Positions 54,837 through 61,798 of a stretch of 64,000 nucleotides of DNA are shown in pieces; within the stretch, counting starts at the first letter, position 1, and every line of letters begins with the position of its first letter. Under the pieces are notes generated by a model. The model saw only the letters and a list, made by a program, of their open reading frames with translations, did not search any database and was not told where the DNA came from. The position numbers and the translations under genes are program-made. Source of the DNA: Wenjunlia tyrosinilytica (lineage in GTDB: Bacteria > Actinomycetota > Actinomycetes > Streptomycetales > Streptomycetaceae); contig NZ_BMMS01000010.1 in NCBI RefSeq assembly GCF_014646055.1, positions 15,674-79,673 on the forward strand, read 5' to 3'.

Positions 54837-55376
54837 CCGACGCCCATCCTGTACCGCCACTATGGCCGTGGCGCCGCTATGGCTGTACCGCCGATATGGT
54901 CGCGCGCCTGATCGGCGTTTCCGGATGCCCTCCGCGGGTTCCACCGGGCCGCGATTCGGCCAGTGGTGTTTCGGATCGGTGAACACCGCGGCAGTGGAAG
55001 ACCCTCGCTTCCTCCGCCGTGGATGTCGTGCGTTCCAGCCGTCAAGAAATGAAAGCAGCACCCCCTCGATCGGGTGGGCAGTGGAGGAAATGGCGACCTT
55101 CATCCCACTTTCGAGTGAGAGTCCGGTCGGGGATCGCTGCATTTCATGAATTGATGCCGGAGCAACCATATGAGCTGTTCACGTGTCCCTTTAGTGGCCG
55201 TTTCGAGCAGCAGTGCGATCTCAGCCTCCGGCGGTGGGCGGGGAAAATATTCTGGTTGACCCCGGTTTGCCGAGTGGATATCCATGGACAGGCTGGGTTG
55301 TAACGGCCGAATCTGGCCCTCCGTTTGGGCGGATTCCGGCCTACCGTCGGGCTCGGAGCAATATCACGGGGGAGAC
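54837..55376. other. Gene-free region before the lasso peptide cluster
   Basis: This 540-base gap contains related 15-19-base units (TGTACCGCC(A/G)(C/A)TATGG at about 54850-54900) close behind the DUF2277 stop codon and an AT-richer stretch at 55230-55300. It marks a drop in coding density at the cluster edge. No gene is supported. Confidence 0.55.
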
Positions 55377-56189
55377 ATGACGAAACTACGGGGGCTGCAC
55401 TACACGTACGTCAGGAACAGGCTGAAAGCGACCGGGTGGACGGCGGACGCGGCGCGCAAGGACATCTGCGCCGACGCGGCGCTGCCCCGGTTCCGGCCCG
55501 GCCTGATGGCCTCATTGATCGAGCGCGCGCTGCCGGCCCGGCTGCGCGACCGCACCGTCGCCGCGCGCACCGCCGCCCGGGAGGAGGAGCGCCGCCGCCT
55601 GCGCCGGGACCTGCACGACGGCCTCGGGGCGACCCTGGCCGGCGTCCGCCTGGTGCTCGACAGCGCGGCGGCCCGGCTCGCCCATGAGCCGACCGCGCGG
55701 CGCCTGGTCCTCCACGCCGCCGCCGAGACGGCCCGCACGGTGGAGGAGATCAGGCGCATCATCGACGACCTTCGGCCGCCCGACCTCGAGGACGCGGGGC
55801 TGCCGGTCGCGTTACGGAGACTGGCCGCCCGGCTGGACAGCCCGGCCGTGGCGGTCACCGCGGAGGTCCCCGACCATCCGCTGGACCTGTCGTGCACGAC
55901 CGAGCTGGCCGCCTACCGCATCGCCTCGGAGGGCCTGGCCAACGTCCTGCGGCACTCCGGCGCCAGCACCGTGACGGTACGCCTGGAGGTCGAGGGCGGG
56001 ACCCTGGTCCTCGATGTGCTCGACGACGGCATCGGGCCGTCCCCCGGCTGCCGACGCGGCCGCGGCACGGGGCTGGCGTCCATGGCGCGCCGCGCGCACG
56101 AGGCCGGAGGGCACTTCGCCCTGCTGCCGCGGCCCGACGCCCGGCCCGGAACCCTCGTACGCGCCGTGCTGCCGCGGGGGCGCGCATGA
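55377..56189 (+). CDS. Cytosolic NarL-type histidine kinase of the lasso cluster; contains a TTA codon
   Basis: The 270-residue kinase has a short N-terminus without membrane segments or a recognised sensor domain, a HisKA_3 dimerisation region with phosphorylated H80 in RRDLHDGLGATLAGV, and a HATPase (LANVLRHSGAS N-box, DDGIG and GTGLASM G-boxes). It pairs with the LuxR-type regulator that overlaps its stop (ATGA). Leu146 is encoded by TTA (55812-55814), so its translation needs the bldA tRNA in Streptomyces; this would place the cluster under developmental control. GGGGGAGA precedes the ATG. How it receives a signal is unclear; a partner membrane protein or a soluble ligand must be assumed. 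Confidence 0.9.
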   Translation: MTKLRGLHYTYVRNRLKATGWTADAARKDICADAALPRFRPGLMASLIERALPARLRDRTVAARTAAREEERRRLRRDLHDGLGATLAGVRLVLDSAAARLAHEPTARRLVLHAAAETARTVEEIRRIIDDLRPPDLEDAGLPVALRRLAARLDSPAVAVTAEVPDHPLDLSCTTELAAYRIASEGLANVLRHSGASTVTVRLEVEGGTLVLDVLDDGIGPSPGCRRGRGTGLASMARRAHEAGGHFALLPRPDARPGTLVRAVLPRGRA

Positions 56190-56848
56190 GCGTGCGGGTC
56201 TTCCTCGTCGACGACCACCCGCTCTTCCGCGCCGGGGTCCGCCTGGCGATGGAGGACGCCGACGACCTGGAGGTCGTCGGGGAGGCGTCCACGGGCGAGG
56301 AGGCGGTGCCGGCCCTGCGCAGCCCCGACATGGCGGCCGACGTCGTCCTGATGGACCTCCTGCTCCCCGGCCGCTCGGGGATCGAGACCACCCGGGCGCT
56401 GATCACCGAGGCCCCGCCGGGCACCACCGCCCCGCGGGTGCTGATCGTCTCCATGTCGGACGAGGACGACGCGGTGGTGGCGGCCATACGTGCCGGGGCG
56501 CACGGCTACCTCGTCAAGGGGACACCGCGCGAGGAACTCCTTCGGGCGGTGCGCACCGTCGCCGAGGGCGGGGCGGTCTTCAGCTCCGCCGTGGCCGCCC
56601 GGCTCAGCGGATACTTCTCCGCCGTGCACGACCTGCCCGGCCGTGCCGCCTTTCCCCAACTCACCGAACGCGAGCGCCAGATCCTCGACCTGCTCGCCCG
56701 CGGATACACCAACCGCCGTATCGCGCGCGAGCTGGTGCTGTCGGAGAAGACCGTGCGCAACCACGTGTCGCACGTGTTCACCAAACTCCAGGTCACCGAC
56801 CGCACCGAGGCGACCGTACGGGCGCGCGACGCCGGTCTGGGCGTCTGA
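56186..56848 (+). CDS. NarL/LuxR-type response regulator of the lasso cluster
   Basis: The 220-residue regulator has a receiver domain (phospho-acceptor D57 in VVLMDLLLPGRSG, Lys in HGYLVKGT) and a C-terminal LuxR-type HTH (LTERERQILDLLARGYTNRRIARELVLSEKTVRNHVSHVFTKL region, shown here only by its start LTERERQILDLLARG). It overlaps the kinase gene and lies upstream of the lasso precursor, the likely target promoter being at about 56901-56929. Confidence 0.92.
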   Translation: MSVRVFLVDDHPLFRAGVRLAMEDADDLEVVGEASTGEEAVPALRSPDMAADVVLMDLLLPGRSGIETTRALITEAPPGTTAPRVLIVSMSDEDDAVVAAIRAGAHGYLVKGTPREELLRAVRTVAEGGAVFSSAVAARLSGYFSAVHDLPGRAAFPQLTERERQILDLLARGYTNRRIARELVLSEKTVRNHVSHVFTKLQVTDRTEATVRARDAGLGV

Positions 56849-56900
56849 CCGGGCGTCCCGCCCGGGCGCGAATCGGGACCTCGACGGGACCTCGCTCCCA

Positions 56901-56929
56901 GGAACCCGGGACCGGGGGCCTCATACGTT
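56901..56929 (+). promoter_or_regulatory. Candidate promoter of the lasso precursor gene
   Basis: GGAACC (56901-56906) and TACGTT (56924-56929) are 17 bases apart. The first element resembles ECF/sigma-E -35 boxes and the second a housekeeping -10. Transcription would begin about 75-80 bases upstream of the precursor ATG. Confidence 0.4.
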
Positions 56930-56947
56930 GAGCTGCACGAGGGAGAA

Positions 56948-56973
56948 GGGCTCCGCGGGTCGCCGCGGAGCCC
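56948..56973 (+). promoter_or_regulatory. Hairpin in the lasso precursor leader
   Basis: GGGCTCCGCGG (56948-56958) and CCGCGGAGCCC (56963-56973) form a perfect 11-bp stem with loop GTCG. It either ends transcripts from the regulator gene or forms a 5' leader structure of the precursor mRNA. Confidence 0.7.
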
Positions 56974-57013
56974 CGATCCCACCCGGATTCGCGTCGAGGG
57001 ATGTGACACGAGC

Positions 57014-57139
57014 ATGGAGAAGCACGACAGCTACGAGCCGCCCACCCTGGTCGAGATCGGCGGCTTCGCCGACCTGACCCTGGCCTTCGGGCCGTGCGTC
57101 GAGAACGACTGGTTCTGGGGCACCGCCTGGATCTGCTAG
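57014..57139 (+). CDS. Class III lasso peptide precursor
   Basis: A 41-residue peptide. The leader (residues 1-23) contains the lasso leader pattern Y7-x2-P10-x-L12-x3-G16 for recognition by the B1 protein and Thr22 at the conserved position -2. The core (24-41) is AFGPCVENDWFWGTAWIC: Ala1 and Asp9 would form a nine-residue macrolactam ring, with one Cys inside the ring (5) and one at the C-terminus (18). A single ring-tail disulfide defines class III (type member BI-32169). The tail GTAWIC resembles the end of class I sviceucin and ENDW the ring end of class IV LP2006. Ala at core position 1 is unusual. The gene is directly followed by hairpins and the cyclase gene. No strong ribosome site is seen (GAGGGA lies 12 bases upstream). 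Confidence 0.93.
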   Translation: MEKHDSYEPPTLVEIGGFADLTLAFGPCVENDWFWGTAWIC

Positions 57140-57159
57140 GCCGCCTCCCCCGGGCGGCC
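57139..57159 (+). terminator. Hairpin overlapping the lasso precursor stop codon
   Basis: GGCCGCC (57139-57145) and GGCGGCC (57153-57159) form a 7-bp GC stem. It begins at the last base of the stop codon and may cause partial termination so that precursor mRNA exceeds enzyme mRNA. Confidence 0.55.
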
Positions 57160-57184
57160 GGTCACACCCGGCCGCCCACTCCCC

Positions 57185-57221
57185 GGCGGTGGAGGGAAGC
57201 ATGGCGGTTCCCTCCACCGCC
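57185..57221 (+). terminator. Strong hairpin between precursor and cyclase genes
   Basis: GGCGGTGGAGGGAA (57185-57198) and TTCCCTCCACCGCC (57208-57221) form a perfect 14-bp stem with a 9-base loop. It lies 63 bases upstream of the cyclase start. It is a good candidate for an attenuator or RNA-stabilising structure as seen between precursor and enzyme genes of other RiPP clusters. Confidence 0.75.
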
Positions 57222-57283
57222 TTCCCGCAGCCCTCTCGCCTCCTCCCACGGCCGACAGGGGCTTCCACACCGGAGAGGCGGAC

Positions 57284-59113
57284 ATGCACTTCTCGATACT
57301 TCCCGACAGTCCCGCGGCCCAGCCCCTGGCGGAGCGCCTCACCGCCGCACCCGGCACCCAGGTGGTCGCCCACGCCTCGGGGCGGCCCTGGATCGCGGGA
57401 CGTTGGGCGGCCGAGGACCTCATCCTCGTGACCGCCGGCGCCCGGCAGCTTGCCCTGCTCGGATACGCCACTGCCGACGAGGGAGCCGTGCGACGGTCCC
57501 TTGCGTCCGCCCGCTCCCTGGGCGAACTCGACGCCGTGGCCCGCACCGTGGCCGGTTCGTTCCACCTGACCGCGTCCCTCGACGGCCGCACACGAGTGCA
57601 GGGCAGCGTCTCCACCGCACGCCAGGTCTTCCACGCCGAGGCCCACGGGGTGACAGTGGCCGCCGACGGCCCCGGCGCCCTCGCCGAACTCCTCGGGGCA
57701 CATCCCGACGAGGAGGTCCTGGCGCTGCGGATGGTGACCCCCTCCCCGCCCTGGCCGCTGAGCCTGCGACCCGTGTGGTCCGGCGTCGAGGCCCTGGACG
57801 TCGGCGCCCGCCTGGAGCTGGGGCCCGACGGCCGCTCCCGGGTGGTGCGGTGGTGGCAGGCGCCCGAGCCCGAGGCCGAGCTGCCGCAGGCGGCCGAGGC
57901 CGTCCGCTCCGCCCTGTCCGACACGATCGCCGCACGCGCCCGCGGCACGATCAGCGCCGACCTGTCCGGCGGCATGGACTCCACCAGCCTGTGCTTCGTC
58001 GCGGACGCCGTGGGAGCCGACCTCGTCACCCACCACTGGAAGCCCCTGGACCGGGCGAACGACGACACGACCTGGGCCGAGCGTGCCGCGAGCCACCTGC
58101 CCTCCGCCCGCCACCGCTTCGTCTCCACCGCGGACAGCCCCACCTGGTACGAGGCGGACGCGGCGGGCGGGACGGCACACGGCGAGGACGAGGGCCCGCT
58201 GCCCTGGGCACGCAACCGCGCGCACATGGAGCGCCTCGTCGCCGATGTCGCGGCCGAGGGCTCCAGCGTCCATCTGCTCGGAGTCGGCGGCGACGAACTG
58301 TTCGGCGCGCTGCCCACCGCCCCCTGGTCGCTCGTCCGCAGCCACCCCCTCACCAGCCTTCCCACCATCCAGCGCTTCCGGGTGCTCAACCGCTGGAGCC
58401 CGGGCTCCACGCTGCGCGGCCTCGCCGACAACAGGTCCTATCCCACCTGGCTGCGCTCGGCGGCGGGCCGGCTCACCGCCCCGGCACCCGGCCCCACCGA
58501 CGCGCTGCTCGGCTGGGGATGGGAGCCCAGGATGCCGCCCTGGGCCACACCCGACGCCGTGGAGACCGTACGGCGCACACTGCGCCGGGCGGCGGAGGAC
58601 GGGCCCCGCCCCCACCACCGCGACCGGGCCCAGCACCAGACCCTGGACTGCGTCGTCCTCAGCGGAGGCGGCATCCGCCAACTCGGCGCCGCCATGCGCG
58701 CCTCCGGGGTCGCCTGTGAAGCCCCCTACCTCGACGACCGCGTCATCGAGGCGGCCCTGTCCGTCCGGATGCGGGACCGGCTGGTGAGCGGCCGCTTCAA
58801 GCCCGTCCTCGCCACCGCCATGCGCGGTGTGGTCCCCGACGAGATCCTCGCCCGCCGCAGCAAGGGCGAGTTCAGCGCCGAGGCCTTCCAGGGCCTGCGC
58901 CGCAACCGCGCCCGCCTCCTCGAACTCTGCGACGACCTGCACCTCTCCCGGCTCGGCCTGGTCGACCCCGCGGCCCTGCGCCGAGCCCTGCTCGGCCCCA
59001 CACCCGAATCACGGCACCTCGTGCCGTTCGAGAACACGCTGGCCTGCGAGAGCTGGCTTCGCTCCCCGAGGGCCACCGCCCCCGGCAGCGCCATGGCAGG
59101 AGGACCACGATGA
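57284..59113 (+). CDS. Lasso cyclase (asparagine synthetase homologue)
   Basis: The 609-residue enzyme is the C protein that adenylates the Asp side chain and closes the macrolactam. It has an N-terminal glutamine-amidotransferase-like domain lacking the catalytic N-terminal Cys (starts MHFSILPDS) and a C-terminal synthetase domain with the PP-loop LSGGMDSTSLCF (SGGMDST at 228-234) and GVGGDELFGALPT, PYLDDRVIEAAL and RRSKGEFSAEAF signatures. GGAGAGG five bases before the ATG gives a good start. Its stop overlaps the PqqD-like gene (ATGA). Confidence 0.95.
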   Translation: MHFSILPDSPAAQPLAERLTAAPGTQVVAHASGRPWIAGRWAAEDLILVTAGARQLALLGYATADEGAVRRSLASARSLGELDAVARTVAGSFHLTASLDGRTRVQGSVSTARQVFHAEAHGVTVAADGPGALAELLGAHPDEEVLALRMVTPSPPWPLSLRPVWSGVEALDVGARLELGPDGRSRVVRWWQAPEPEAELPQAAEAVRSALSDTIAARARGTISADLSGGMDSTSLCFVADAVGADLVTHHWKPLDRANDDTTWAERAASHLPSARHRFVSTADSPTWYEADAAGGTAHGEDEGPLPWARNRAHMERLVADVAAEGSSVHLLGVGGDELFGALPTAPWSLVRSHPLTSLPTIQRFRVLNRWSPGSTLRGLADNRSYPTWLRSAAGRLTAPAPGPTDALLGWGWEPRMPPWATPDAVETVRRTLRRAAEDGPRPHHRDRAQHQTLDCVVLSGGGIRQLGAAMRASGVACEAPYLDDRVIEAALSVRMRDRLVSGRFKPVLATAMRGVVPDEILARRSKGEFSAEAFQGLRRNRARLLELCDDLHLSRLGLVDPAALRRALLGPTPESRHLVPFENTLACESWLRSPRATAPGSAMAGGPR

Positions 59114-59370
59114 CCCTCGCCCTCACCCCCGACGTCACCGCCACCGACACCGATGACGGCCTGGTCCTGCTCGACCAGCGCACCGGCCGCTACTGGCAGC
59201 TCAACCGGACCGGAGCCACCACATTGCGCCTCCTGCTCGACGGGCTCTCGCCCGAGGACGCCGCCTCGGCGCTCACCGCGCACAGCCCCGACGCCGCCGA
59301 CCGCGCCCTCACCGACGTCAGGACACTGCTGGACGCCCTGCGAGCCGCCCACCTGGTGGTGACGGCATGA
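59110..59370 (+). CDS. Lasso leader-recognition protein B1 (PqqD-like RRE)
   Basis: An 86-residue protein of the PqqD-like RiPP recognition element type: VTATDTDDGLVLLDQRTGRYWQLN and GATTLRLLLDGLSPEDAASAL. It binds the precursor leader and presents it to the B2 protease. AGGAGG six bases before the ATG; overlaps the cyclase stop and the B2 start, so the order C-B1-B2 is tightly coupled. Confidence 0.94.
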   Translation: MTLALTPDVTATDTDDGLVLLDQRTGRYWQLNRTGATTLRLLLDGLSPEDAASALTAHSPDAADRALTDVRTLLDALRAAHLVVTA

Positions 59371-59795
59371 CCATGCAGGTCACCGCGGAGCTCAGGGTCC
59401 CGCTCCCATGGCACCGCCACATCACCGCCAGAGCCGCCGTGATCGCCGCCCGCGTACTCATCCAGCTGCCGCCACGGCGGCTGCGTCGAGTGCTGGAGAG
59501 CGCGCGCCGAGGAGCCCGCCCCGCGACCGCCGACCGCGCCCTCGCCGCCCGCGAGGCGGTGGTCACCGTCAGCACCCGCTGCGCCGGACAGGGCTGTCTG
59601 CAACGGTCGGTGGCCACCGCCCTGCTGTGCCGCCTCGGCGGTGGCTGGCCCGACTGGTGCACCGGCATCCGCACACAGCCCTTCCGGGCCCATGCGTGGG
59701 TGGAGGTGGACGGTGCGGCGATCGGCGAATCCGCCGACGTCACCTTGTTCCACACCGTCATGAGCGTGCGGCACGCCCAGGGGAAGCGTCCATGA
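59367..59795 (+). CDS. Lasso leader protease B2 (transglutaminase-like)
   Basis: The 142-residue B2 protease cleaves after the leader (after L23 in the precursor). The transglutaminase-like triad is represented by C77 (GQGCLQRSVATALL), H109 (FRAHAWVEVDG) and an acidic residue shortly after. Its start overlaps the B1 stop and its stop overlaps the ATPase start. It is separate from B1, as usual in actinobacterial lasso clusters. Confidence 0.94.
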   Translation: MTMQVTAELRVPLPWHRHITARAAVIAARVLIQLPPRRLRRVLESARRGARPATADRALAAREAVVTVSTRCAGQGCLQRSVATALLCRLGGGWPDWCTGIRTQPFRAHAWVEVDGAAIGESADVTLFHTVMSVRHAQGKRP

Positions 59796-60895
59796 GCCCG
59801 GGCGGAAGCGGCGGCGCCGCCGTACTCGCCGAGGGCCTGCGCAAGGACTACGGCGACAGGAGCGCCGTCGACGGGCTGGACCTGGCCGTCCCCGCCGGCC
59901 GCACCTTTGGCTTCCTCGGCCCCAACGGCGCGGGCAAGAGCACCACCATCGGAATGCTGTGCACCCTCCTGCGGCCGTCCGGCGGGCGGGCACGGGTCGC
60001 CGGACGCGATGTGCTGAGCGAACCCCACGAGGTACGCCGCCGCATCGGGCTCGTCTTCCAGGAGTCCACGCTCGACGTGGACCTGACCGCCATGGAGAAT
60101 CTGCGGTTCCACGCCGACCTGTTCGGGATACCCCGACGGCAGGCCGTCGAGTCCATCATCGACATGCTCGAACTCGTCGATCTGGCGGACCGCAGGGACT
60201 CCACCGTCCGCACCTTCTCCGGAGGTATGCGGCGGCGGCTCGAGATCGCCCGGGGACTCCTGCACACGCCGAGGGTGCTCTTCCTGGACGAGCCCACCAC
60301 CGGCCTGGACCCGCAGACCAGGGTGGCCATCTGGGAGCATCTGCACCGCCTGCGGCGCGAGCGGGAAGTCACCGTCTTCCTGACGACGCATCACCTCGAG
60401 GAAGCCGAACACTGCGACCTGATCGCCATCATGGACGAGGGACGGCTGGTCGCCCAGGGCACTCCCGCCGAGCTCAAGGCCGTGGTCGGCGCCGACCTGG
60501 TCGTCCTGCGGACCGATGACGACGAGGCAGCCGCACGGGCCATCCGGGAACGGCTGGGCCTCGACGCCGACAGCTTCGACGCCGACAGCTTCGATACCGC
60601 CGATCTCGATACCGCCGGTCTCGACGCCGCCGGTCTGGACGCCCCCAGCCTCGACGCCGCCGGTCTCGACGCCGACGGCTTCGCCCCGGACAGGAGCCCC
60701 GGAGGGCTGCGGCTGCGGGTGCCGGACGGGGCGGCCTTCGTACCCAGGCTCTGCGCGGCCATCTCCGTCCCCGTGCACTCGGTCACGGTGACCCCGCCGA
60801 CACTCGACGATGTGTTCCTGCACTACACCGGGCGAACCATCCGGGAAGCAGACAGCGGCGCAAGCCCGTTCGCCGGCATCGCACCGAGGAGGTAG
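59792..60895 (+). CDS. ABC transporter ATPase with pentapeptide-repeat insert
   Basis: The 367-residue ATPase of the drug-exporter (DrrA-like) type has Walker A GPNGAGKST (43-51), the Q-loop FQEST, signature TFSGGMRRRLEIARGL, Walker B VLFLDEPTTGLDP and H-loop TTHHLEEAEH. After the nucleotide-binding domain, residues 257-296 are eight tandem pentapeptides of the pattern (L/F)-D-(A/T)-x-x, then the usual DrrA C-terminal part (VTVTPPTLDDVFLHYTGRTI). With the adjacent permease it should export the mature lasso peptide and may confer immunity. GGGGAAG five bases before the ATG; overlaps the B2 stop. Confidence 0.93.
   Translation: MSPGGSGGAAVLAEGLRKDYGDRSAVDGLDLAVPAGRTFGFLGPNGAGKSTTIGMLCTLLRPSGGRARVAGRDVLSEPHEVRRRIGLVFQESTLDVDLTAMENLRFHADLFGIPRRQAVESIIDMLELVDLADRRDSTVRTFSGGMRRRLEIARGLLHTPRVLFLDEPTTGLDPQTRVAIWEHLHRLRREREVTVFLTTHHLEEAEHCDLIAIMDEGRLVAQGTPAELKAVVGADLVVLRTDDDEAAARAIRERLGLDADSFDADSFDTADLDTAGLDAAGLDAPSLDAAGLDADGFAPDRSPGGLRLRVPDGAAFVPRLCAAISVPVHSVTVTPPTLDDVFLHYTGRTIREADSGASPFAGIAPRR
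60560..60679 (+). repeat. 15-bp tandem repeat coding for eight pentapeptides
   Basis: Eight 15-base units (type CTCGACGCCGCCGGT) encode LDADS, FDADS, FDTAD, LDTAG, LDAAG, LDAPS, LDAAG and LDADG within the exporter ATPase. The codons vary between copies, so the peptide pattern is conserved more than the DNA. Confidence 0.93.
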
Positions 60896-60898
60896 GCC

Positions 60899-61798
60899 AT
60901 GGCCCGCACCGAACCTGCCGCCGTGGACACGGCCGCCCCGACCACCACCCCCGAGCCGGTGCCCCCGCCCGAGGAGACCGCCGGCCGCGGCGCGCTCGCC
61001 GCCGACCTGCGTGCCGTCAGGGTCCTGTGGCAGCGCGAGGTCATCCGCTTCGGCCGCAACCGGCTCCGGGTCGCCATGAGCGCGGTCACTCCGCTGATGT
61101 TCCTACTGATCCTCGGCACCGGCCTCAACTCCGCGCTGTCCTCGCAGCAGGACAGCCTCAGGGACTTTCGCGCCTTTCTCTTCCCCGGGGTGCTCCTGAT
61201 GGCCGTACAGGCCCCCGCCGTCGCCGCGGGAGCCTCGATCGTCTGGGACCGGCAGGCGGGCTTTCTTCGCCAGATGCTTGTGGCCCCGGTACGCCGCAGC
61301 CCCCTCCTGACCGGCACCTGCCTCGGAGGCGCCACCGCCGGAGTCGGCTATGGGCTGCCCATCCTGTGCCTCGGTGGAATGGTCGGCATCCCCTACCGGC
61401 CGGAGCTGGTGCTCGCCCTGATGGAACTGGGGCTGATCGCCTTCGCGTTCACGGCGCTGGGGGTGCTGGTGGCCGTGTGCGCCAAGCGGCCAGAGACCTT
61501 CCAGGTCGTCGTCGGACTGTGCATGATGCCCCTGCTCTTCCTGTCCGGTGCGGTCTTTCCCGCCGGTGGGCTGCCGGGGTGGCTGGGCACCGCCGTCATG
61601 GCCAACCCCCTGACCTATGCGGTCGACGCACTCAGGCGCACCCTGCCCGGAGCCGGTGTCAGCGGCCTGGGCACCCGTGCGGCGAGCCCCGAGTGGTGGG
61701 GCTGGACCCCGCCGGTCGCCCTGGAGGTCGGCCTGATAGCGGCGCTGGCGATGGCGGCGCTGGCCGTGGCGACATACCGGTTCTCCCACTCCGAGTGA
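60899..61798 (+). CDS. ABC-2 type permease of the lasso exporter
   Basis: The 299-residue permease has a Pro/Thr-rich cytosolic N-terminus (about 45 residues) and six membrane helices between about 55 and 290, with the ABC-2 signature region around FLSGAVFPAGGLPGWLGTAVMANPLTYAVDALR. GGAGGT precedes the ATG and only three bases separate it from the ATPase gene. A separate ATPase and permease pair replaces the single-chain D transporter of proteobacterial lasso clusters. It is the last gene of the lasso operon. Confidence 0.93.
   Translation: MARTEPAAVDTAAPTTTPEPVPPPEETAGRGALAADLRAVRVLWQREVIRFGRNRLRVAMSAVTPLMFLLILGTGLNSALSSQQDSLRDFRAFLFPGVLLMAVQAPAVAAGASIVWDRQAGFLRQMLVAPVRRSPLLTGTCLGGATAGVGYGLPILCLGGMVGIPYRPELVLALMELGLIAFAFTALGVLVAVCAKRPETFQVVVGLCMMPLLFLSGAVFPAGGLPGWLGTAVMANPLTYAVDALRRTLPGAGVSGLGTRAASPEWWGWTPPVALEVGLIAALAMAALAVATYRFSHSE

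What the first reader, a model, noticed from the sequence alone, without database searches (positions are those of the whole stretch)
57014..57139. Unannotated class III lasso peptide precursor with Ala at core position 1
A 41-residue gene lies in a gap between a response regulator and an asparagine-synthetase homologue. It carries the lasso leader motif (Y-x2-P-x-L-x3-G, Thr at -2) and a core AFGPCVENDWFWGTAWIC. Asp at position 9 allows an Ala1-Asp9 ring, and the two Cys (ring position 5, C-terminal position 18) fit a ring-tail disulfide. Class III lasso peptides are very rare (BI-32169 is the type member). Ala1, Cys5 and a tail with three Trp in total distinguish this one from those I know.
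Basis: partly seen in the sequence, partly recalled or inferred. Interest (0 to 1): 0.93.

Follow-up and report, generated by a model that had tools for sequence, protein, structure and literature searches.

The report
Close variant of lasso peptide 9401-LP1
The gene encodes the precursor of a small knotted bacterial peptide that differs by a single amino acid in its mature part from one already made and described in 2018, so it is a sound but ordinary new member of a known, small group.

Summary
57014-57139 encodes a 41-aa lasso precursor that passes NCBI's lasso-leader model and is followed by a cyclase, PqqD/RRE, B2 protease and ABC exporter. A leader profile built without this family gives it 40.9 bits; the next window segment scores 4.4 and the best of 30 simulated windows 7.9.

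The novelty claim fails. The core AFGPCVENDWFWGTAWIC matches 17 of 18 residues of 9401-LP1 (AFGPCVENDWFAGTAWIC), listed in 2018 as 'type III Ala1', expressed heterologously, and shown to carry one disulfide and resist carboxypeptidase Y until reduced (PMC5974421 passages). Ala1 is also on record in class II. Four Streptomyces loci carry the same family with the same gene order; L034's precursor is that of 9401-LP1. Only core positions 6, 8, 11 and 12 vary.

Best reading: an 18-residue class III lasso with an Ala1-Asp9 ring, a Cys5-Cys18 disulfide and Trp16 plug, exported by the clustered ABC transporter; target unknown. New member of a known kind, low interest.

The parts
57014..57139 (+). Lasso precursor gene A; leader residues 1-23, core 24-41 (AFGPCVENDWFWGTAWIC)
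   Evidence: NCBIfam NF033521 above cut-off; 17/18 core identity to 9401-LP1; 4 homologous loci
57152..57177 (+). G+C-rich inverted repeat, 10-bp arms, A-C intergenic region
   Evidence: no matching repeat was listed in the four relatives
57185..57221 (+). Perfect 14-bp inverted repeat between A and cyclase genes, terminator- or attenuator-like
   Evidence: 91-nt region folds with z -5.7; a stem of the same core sequence lies in the A-C gap in 5 of 5 loci, with one C-G to T-A paired change
57284..59113 (+). Lasso macrolactam cyclase (C), Asn-synthase-like, 609 aa
   Evidence: Pfam PF00733 E 2e-40; NF033561 230 bits, below its cut-off of 300
59110..59370 (+). PqqD-like leader-binding protein (RRE, B1/E)
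   Evidence: NF033530 103.9 bits, cut-off 70
59367..59795 (+). Leader peptidase (B2), transglutaminase-like
   Evidence: NF033537 112.6 bits, cut-off 33; PF13471
59792..60895 (+). ABC transporter ATPase, DrrA type; start taken at the ATG overlapping the B2 stop
   Evidence: TIGR01188 above cut-off, on the longer ORF 59408-60892; start read
60899..61798 (+). ABC-2 type permease, DrrB type
   Evidence: PF01061; follows the ATPase in L031-L034
56186..56848 (+). NarL-type response regulator, probable cluster regulator
   Evidence: start read; homologue upstream of A in 4 of 4 relatives, 66-76% identical over aligned stretches, in two pieces in L034
55284..56189 (+). Histidine kinase overlapping the response regulator
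   Evidence: PF07730 and PF02518; no homologue found in L031-L034 (E <= 1e-4; relaxed), so its link to the peptide is weak

Best explanation
A functional-looking biosynthetic cluster for an 18-residue class III lasso peptide of the 9401-LP1 family. The PqqD/RRE protein binds the leader, B2 cuts after Leu23 (Thr at -2), the cyclase joins the Ala1 amine to the Asp9 side chain around the tail, and Cys5 and Cys18 form a ring-tail disulfide with Trp16 as the likely steric plug. The DrrAB-type ABC transporter exports the peptide and may give immunity. Shown here: the genes, their order and the near-identity to 9401-LP1. Inferred by homology: processing, threading, disulfide. Unknown: the target. A narrow-spectrum antibacterial or signalling role is a guess.
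For: Leader model and enzyme genes; leader HMM control. Core 17/18 identical to 9401-LP1, for which the paper reports the calculated mass, +2 Da with DTT, carboxypeptidase Y resistance before reduction, and products A1-W10 and A1-I17 after it (PMC5974421 passages). The mass sum for a core less one water and 2 H gives [M+2H]2+ 983.916 for 9401-LP1, reported 983.92. Order RR-A-C-RRE-B2-ABC-permease kept in 4 of 4 relatives. Ala1, Cys5, Asp9, Trp16 and Cys18 invariant in 5 of 5. The six cluster genes A to permease read without internal stops.
Against: No product has been observed from this strain. Glu7 is as invariant as Asp9 in the five precursors. L034, the relative with the 9401-LP1 precursor, has several enzyme genes that align in two or three pieces, as if frameshifted; sequencing error was not ruled in or out. 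The cyclase scores below the cut-off of its best NCBIfam model.
Confidence: 0.93

Rival explanations
1. The macrolactam closes on Glu7, giving a 7-residue ring, with Asp9 outside the ring.
For: Glu7 is invariant in 5 of 5 family members. LP2006 has a similar FENDW stretch (sequence); that its ring closes on the Glu is recalled.
Against: Reduced 9401-LP1 is trimmed by carboxypeptidase Y to A1-W10; the paper says the enzyme can cut non-lasso peptides up to the residue next to the ring, which points to Asp9.
Confidence: 0.05
2. A silent or decaying cluster that yields no lasso peptide in its host.
For: No expression data here. 9401-LP1 was detected only at trace to modest level in heterologous hosts (Table 2).
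Against: The six cluster genes are open, and cyclase, RRE, B2 and transporter genes keep 63-87% identity to L031-L034 over aligned stretches.
Confidence: 0.05
3. A wholly new kind of class III lasso peptide.
For: Trp12 is not in 9401-LP1, and the exact core was not found in the library's main texts: a paper printing it unbroken would have held at least two of the five terms, and neither of the 2 papers listed held ENDWFWG. Supplements and subscription papers were not searched.
Against: 17 of 18 core residues match a characterised peptide. L033 also has Trp12, with Val11, so Trp12 is variation within the family.
Confidence: 0.02

Closest known systems
9401-LP1 (Streptomyces sp. ADI94-01; Mevaere et al. 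2018, PMC5974421)
   Same: Leader type, Ala1, Cys5, Asp9, Cys18, 18-residue core, 17/18 core identity, 33/41 over the precursor (counted against L034, which has the same 41 letters)
   Different: Ala12 becomes Trp in the loop; seven further differences, all in the leader
BI-32169 (class III type member; sequence in PMC12427821)
   Same: One ring-tail disulfide ending in a C-terminal Cys; Asp9 in the same place
   Different: Gly1, Cys6, 19 residues, different core
SSV-2083 and the siamycin group (class I; sequences)
   Same: SSV-2083 ends GTAWIC-V, like GTAWIC here. Cyclases of the class I-type loci sampled here lie in one supported clade with this cyclase; the SSV-2083 cyclase itself was not in that tree
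   Different: Two disulfides, Cys1 and an extra loop Cys
LP2006 (class IV; sequence)
   Same: Similar FENDW / VENDW stretch
   Different: Both Cys in the tail

Membership tests
Lasso peptide biosynthetic cluster | Precursor with lasso leader, including Thr at -2 | tested here: met
   NF033521 32.8 bits, cut-off 19; Thr22
Lasso peptide biosynthetic cluster | Adjacent cyclase, RRE and leader peptidase | tested here: met
   RRE and B2 models above cut-off; the cyclase is below the cut-off of its subfamily model (230 of 300) but passes PF00733
Lasso peptide biosynthetic cluster | Threaded macrolactam product | not testable with these tools
   needs MS or NMR
Class III lasso peptides | Two Cys, one in the ring and one in the tail | tested here: met
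   Cys5 within residues 1-9 (or 1-7), Cys18 C-terminal; ring size itself inferred
Class III lasso peptides | One disulfide formed between ring and tail | not testable with these tools
   one disulfide shown for 9401-LP1 by DTT, +2 Da
9401-LP1 family | Core pattern AFGPCxExDWxxGTAWIC | tested here: met
   5 of 5 aligned precursors and 9401-LP1 itself; the pattern was drawn from these same sequences
9401-LP1 family | Same gene order, A-C-RRE-B2-ABC-permease | tested here: met
   4 of 4 relatives; the 9401-LP1 cluster itself was not fetched

The most novel reading that the evidence does not exclude
Class III (9401-LP1 and BI-32169 types) and class I (siamycin type) lasso peptides are one lineage that shares the ring-tail disulfide and differs by gain or loss of the second one; within the 9401-LP1 branch, loop residues 11-12 are the fast-changing, perhaps target-facing, site, where this peptide carries Phe-Trp.
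Probability: 0.5. Interest if true: 0.35.

Novelty: new member of a known kind. Interest (0 to 1): 0.15.

Why it matters
It adds a natural single-residue analogue to a very small class and gives an exact mass to look for. The set of five shows which core positions vary in nature (6, 8, 11, 12) and which do not, which is useful for work on the class III fold. It does not open a new kind of chemistry.

Tried and rejected
Rejected: novelty of Ala1 or Cys5. Plasmid search with the precursor: no match. Rfam on 56800-57400: two hits, both far below gathering score. Histidine kinase as a conserved cluster part: no homologue found in L031-L034. Structure prediction was not run, because standard folding of an 18-residue branched peptide would say nothing about threading. 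Class III as a clade of its own: not shown (2 label changes; one origin in 24% of 200 bootstrap trees); no AU test was run. Two paper searches led to reviews and to PMC5974421 among other listings; searches added no further class III peptide of this type in their listings. In one search only loci with the precursor on the + strand gave a readable precursor; the - strand loci were not re-read as such.

Full report
What is there. The ORF at 57014-57139 encodes MEKHDSYEPPTLVEIGGFADLTLAFGPCVENDWFWGTAWIC. It passes NCBI's lasso-leader model (NF033521, 32.8 bits, cut-off 19) and has no Pfam hit. Downstream on the same strand lie an Asn-synthase-like cyclase (57284-59113), a PqqD/RRE protein (59110-59370, NF033530 above cut-off), a B2 protease (59367-59795, NF033537 above cut-off), an ABC ATPase (59792-60895) and an ABC-2 permease (60899-61798). 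The cyclase's best NCBIfam model is the albusnodin/ikarugamycin one, at 230 bits with a cut-off of 300.

More than chance. A leader HMM from 22 rows (21 different precursors) outside this family finds the ORF at 40.9 bits among 985 window segments; the next scores 4.4, and the best of 30 order-2 Markov windows scores 7.9. In the window's own genome the precursor has one match at E up to 0.001, itself.

Already known. A full-text search for pieces of the core found PMC5974421. Its Table 1, seen as passages, lists 9401-LP1 with precursor METNDVYEPPALEEIGGFAELTM-AFGPCVENDWFAGTAWIC, marked 'type III Ala1'; the paper calls it the third example of type III. The authors detected it in S. albus and S. 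lividans. DTT added 2 Da; carboxypeptidase Y left it intact before reduction and gave A1-I17 and A1-W10 after it. It had no activity on the six bacterial species named in the passage. The present core differs only at position 12, Trp for Ala. Ala1 also occurs in caulonodin VI and paeninodin and in pseudomycoidin. I saw passages of five papers, none whole, and no supplements.

Relatives. A scan of genome contigs with the cyclase gave 7 loci. Four of the 7 (L031 S. graminilatus, L032 S. longispororuber, L033 S. typhae, L034 Streptomyces sp. P3) carry this precursor family; L035 and L037 have other precursors, and in L036 my motif scan found none. L034's precursor is, letter for letter, that of 9401-LP1 (compared by eye). 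Core positions 6, 8, 11 and 12 vary; the other 14 are invariant in 5 of 5. Pairwise, the precursor genes show more amino-acid-changing than silent codon differences in 10 of 10 pairs, but the sites are few and the pairs not independent, so I draw no conclusion about selection. Among 394 genomes of the family, the precursor matched 45 at E up to 0.1, the own genome included; none of the other 44 came below E 1.7e-4. A profile of the five precursors matched 1 of 394 genomes of the class, the own one, at E up to 1e-6. The type is rare in these samples, which are partial draws.

Gene order. Response regulator, A, cyclase, RRE, B2, ATPase and permease are kept in 4 of 4 relatives, with several genes in L034 aligning in pieces. 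The histidine kinase next to the regulator here has no homologue in those loci. Between A and the cyclase a hairpin with a GGTGGAGG stem lies in 5 of 5 loci; one stem position is C-G here and T-A in the other four, and the five folds have z from -2.5 (L031) to -6.6 (L033). The 9401-LP1 paper notes such a repeat in many lasso clusters, and that replacing the region with a promoter cassette raised yield 2-4 fold in S. albus.

Mechanism. From homology to 9401-LP1: leader removal after Leu23, Ala1-Asp9 macrolactam, Cys5-Cys18 disulfide, Trp16 plug, export by the ABC transporter. The A1-W10 product of reduced 9401-LP1 favours Asp9 over the equally conserved Glu7. Predicted mass 2080.860, [M+2H]2+ 1041.437; the same sum gives 983.916 for 9401-LP1, reported 983.92. 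The target is unknown.

Side result. A tree of 37 cyclases (window, L031-L037 and 29 of the 30 loci fetched; L038, the window's own, was dropped) puts the five 9401-LP1-type cyclases in one clade (100/99). It puts these, a BI-32169-like locus (L039), five class I-type loci and the mixed locus L046 in one clade (100/100, 12 rows); the class I-type loci with L046 form a clade (98/99). Limits: one search found matches in 83 of 297 genomes and only the 30 best loci were fetched, so the sample leans to near kin of this cyclase; class labels are my reading of the cores, and three rows without a found precursor (L036, L055, L062) were pooled with class II; L034 and L036 entered as 426-aa pieces. Against a simple story: two further loci with one ring Cys and one tail Cys (L035, L052) fall elsewhere in the tree, and whether L039 joins the 9401-LP1 clade is open (one origin of class III in 24% of 200 bootstrap trees). 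L046 holds two precursors, one with four Cys and one with two, which fits gain or loss of one disulfide.

Noticed in passing
A 2022 review passage says the BI-32169 gene cluster was not identified.
   Followed up: partly
   Followed up: partly
   Followed up: no
L034 4844-10471: Response regulator, cyclase, RRE, ATPase and permease genes each align in two or three pieces in Streptomyces sp. P3; sequencing error or decay not told apart.
   Followed up: no
window 57185-57221: Perfect 14-bp hairpin between precursor and cyclase genes, with a like stem in four relatives and one paired change.
   Followed up: partly
window 55284-56189: Histidine kinase overlapping the response regulator, without a homologue found in the four relatives, where the regulator is kept.
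   Followed up: partly
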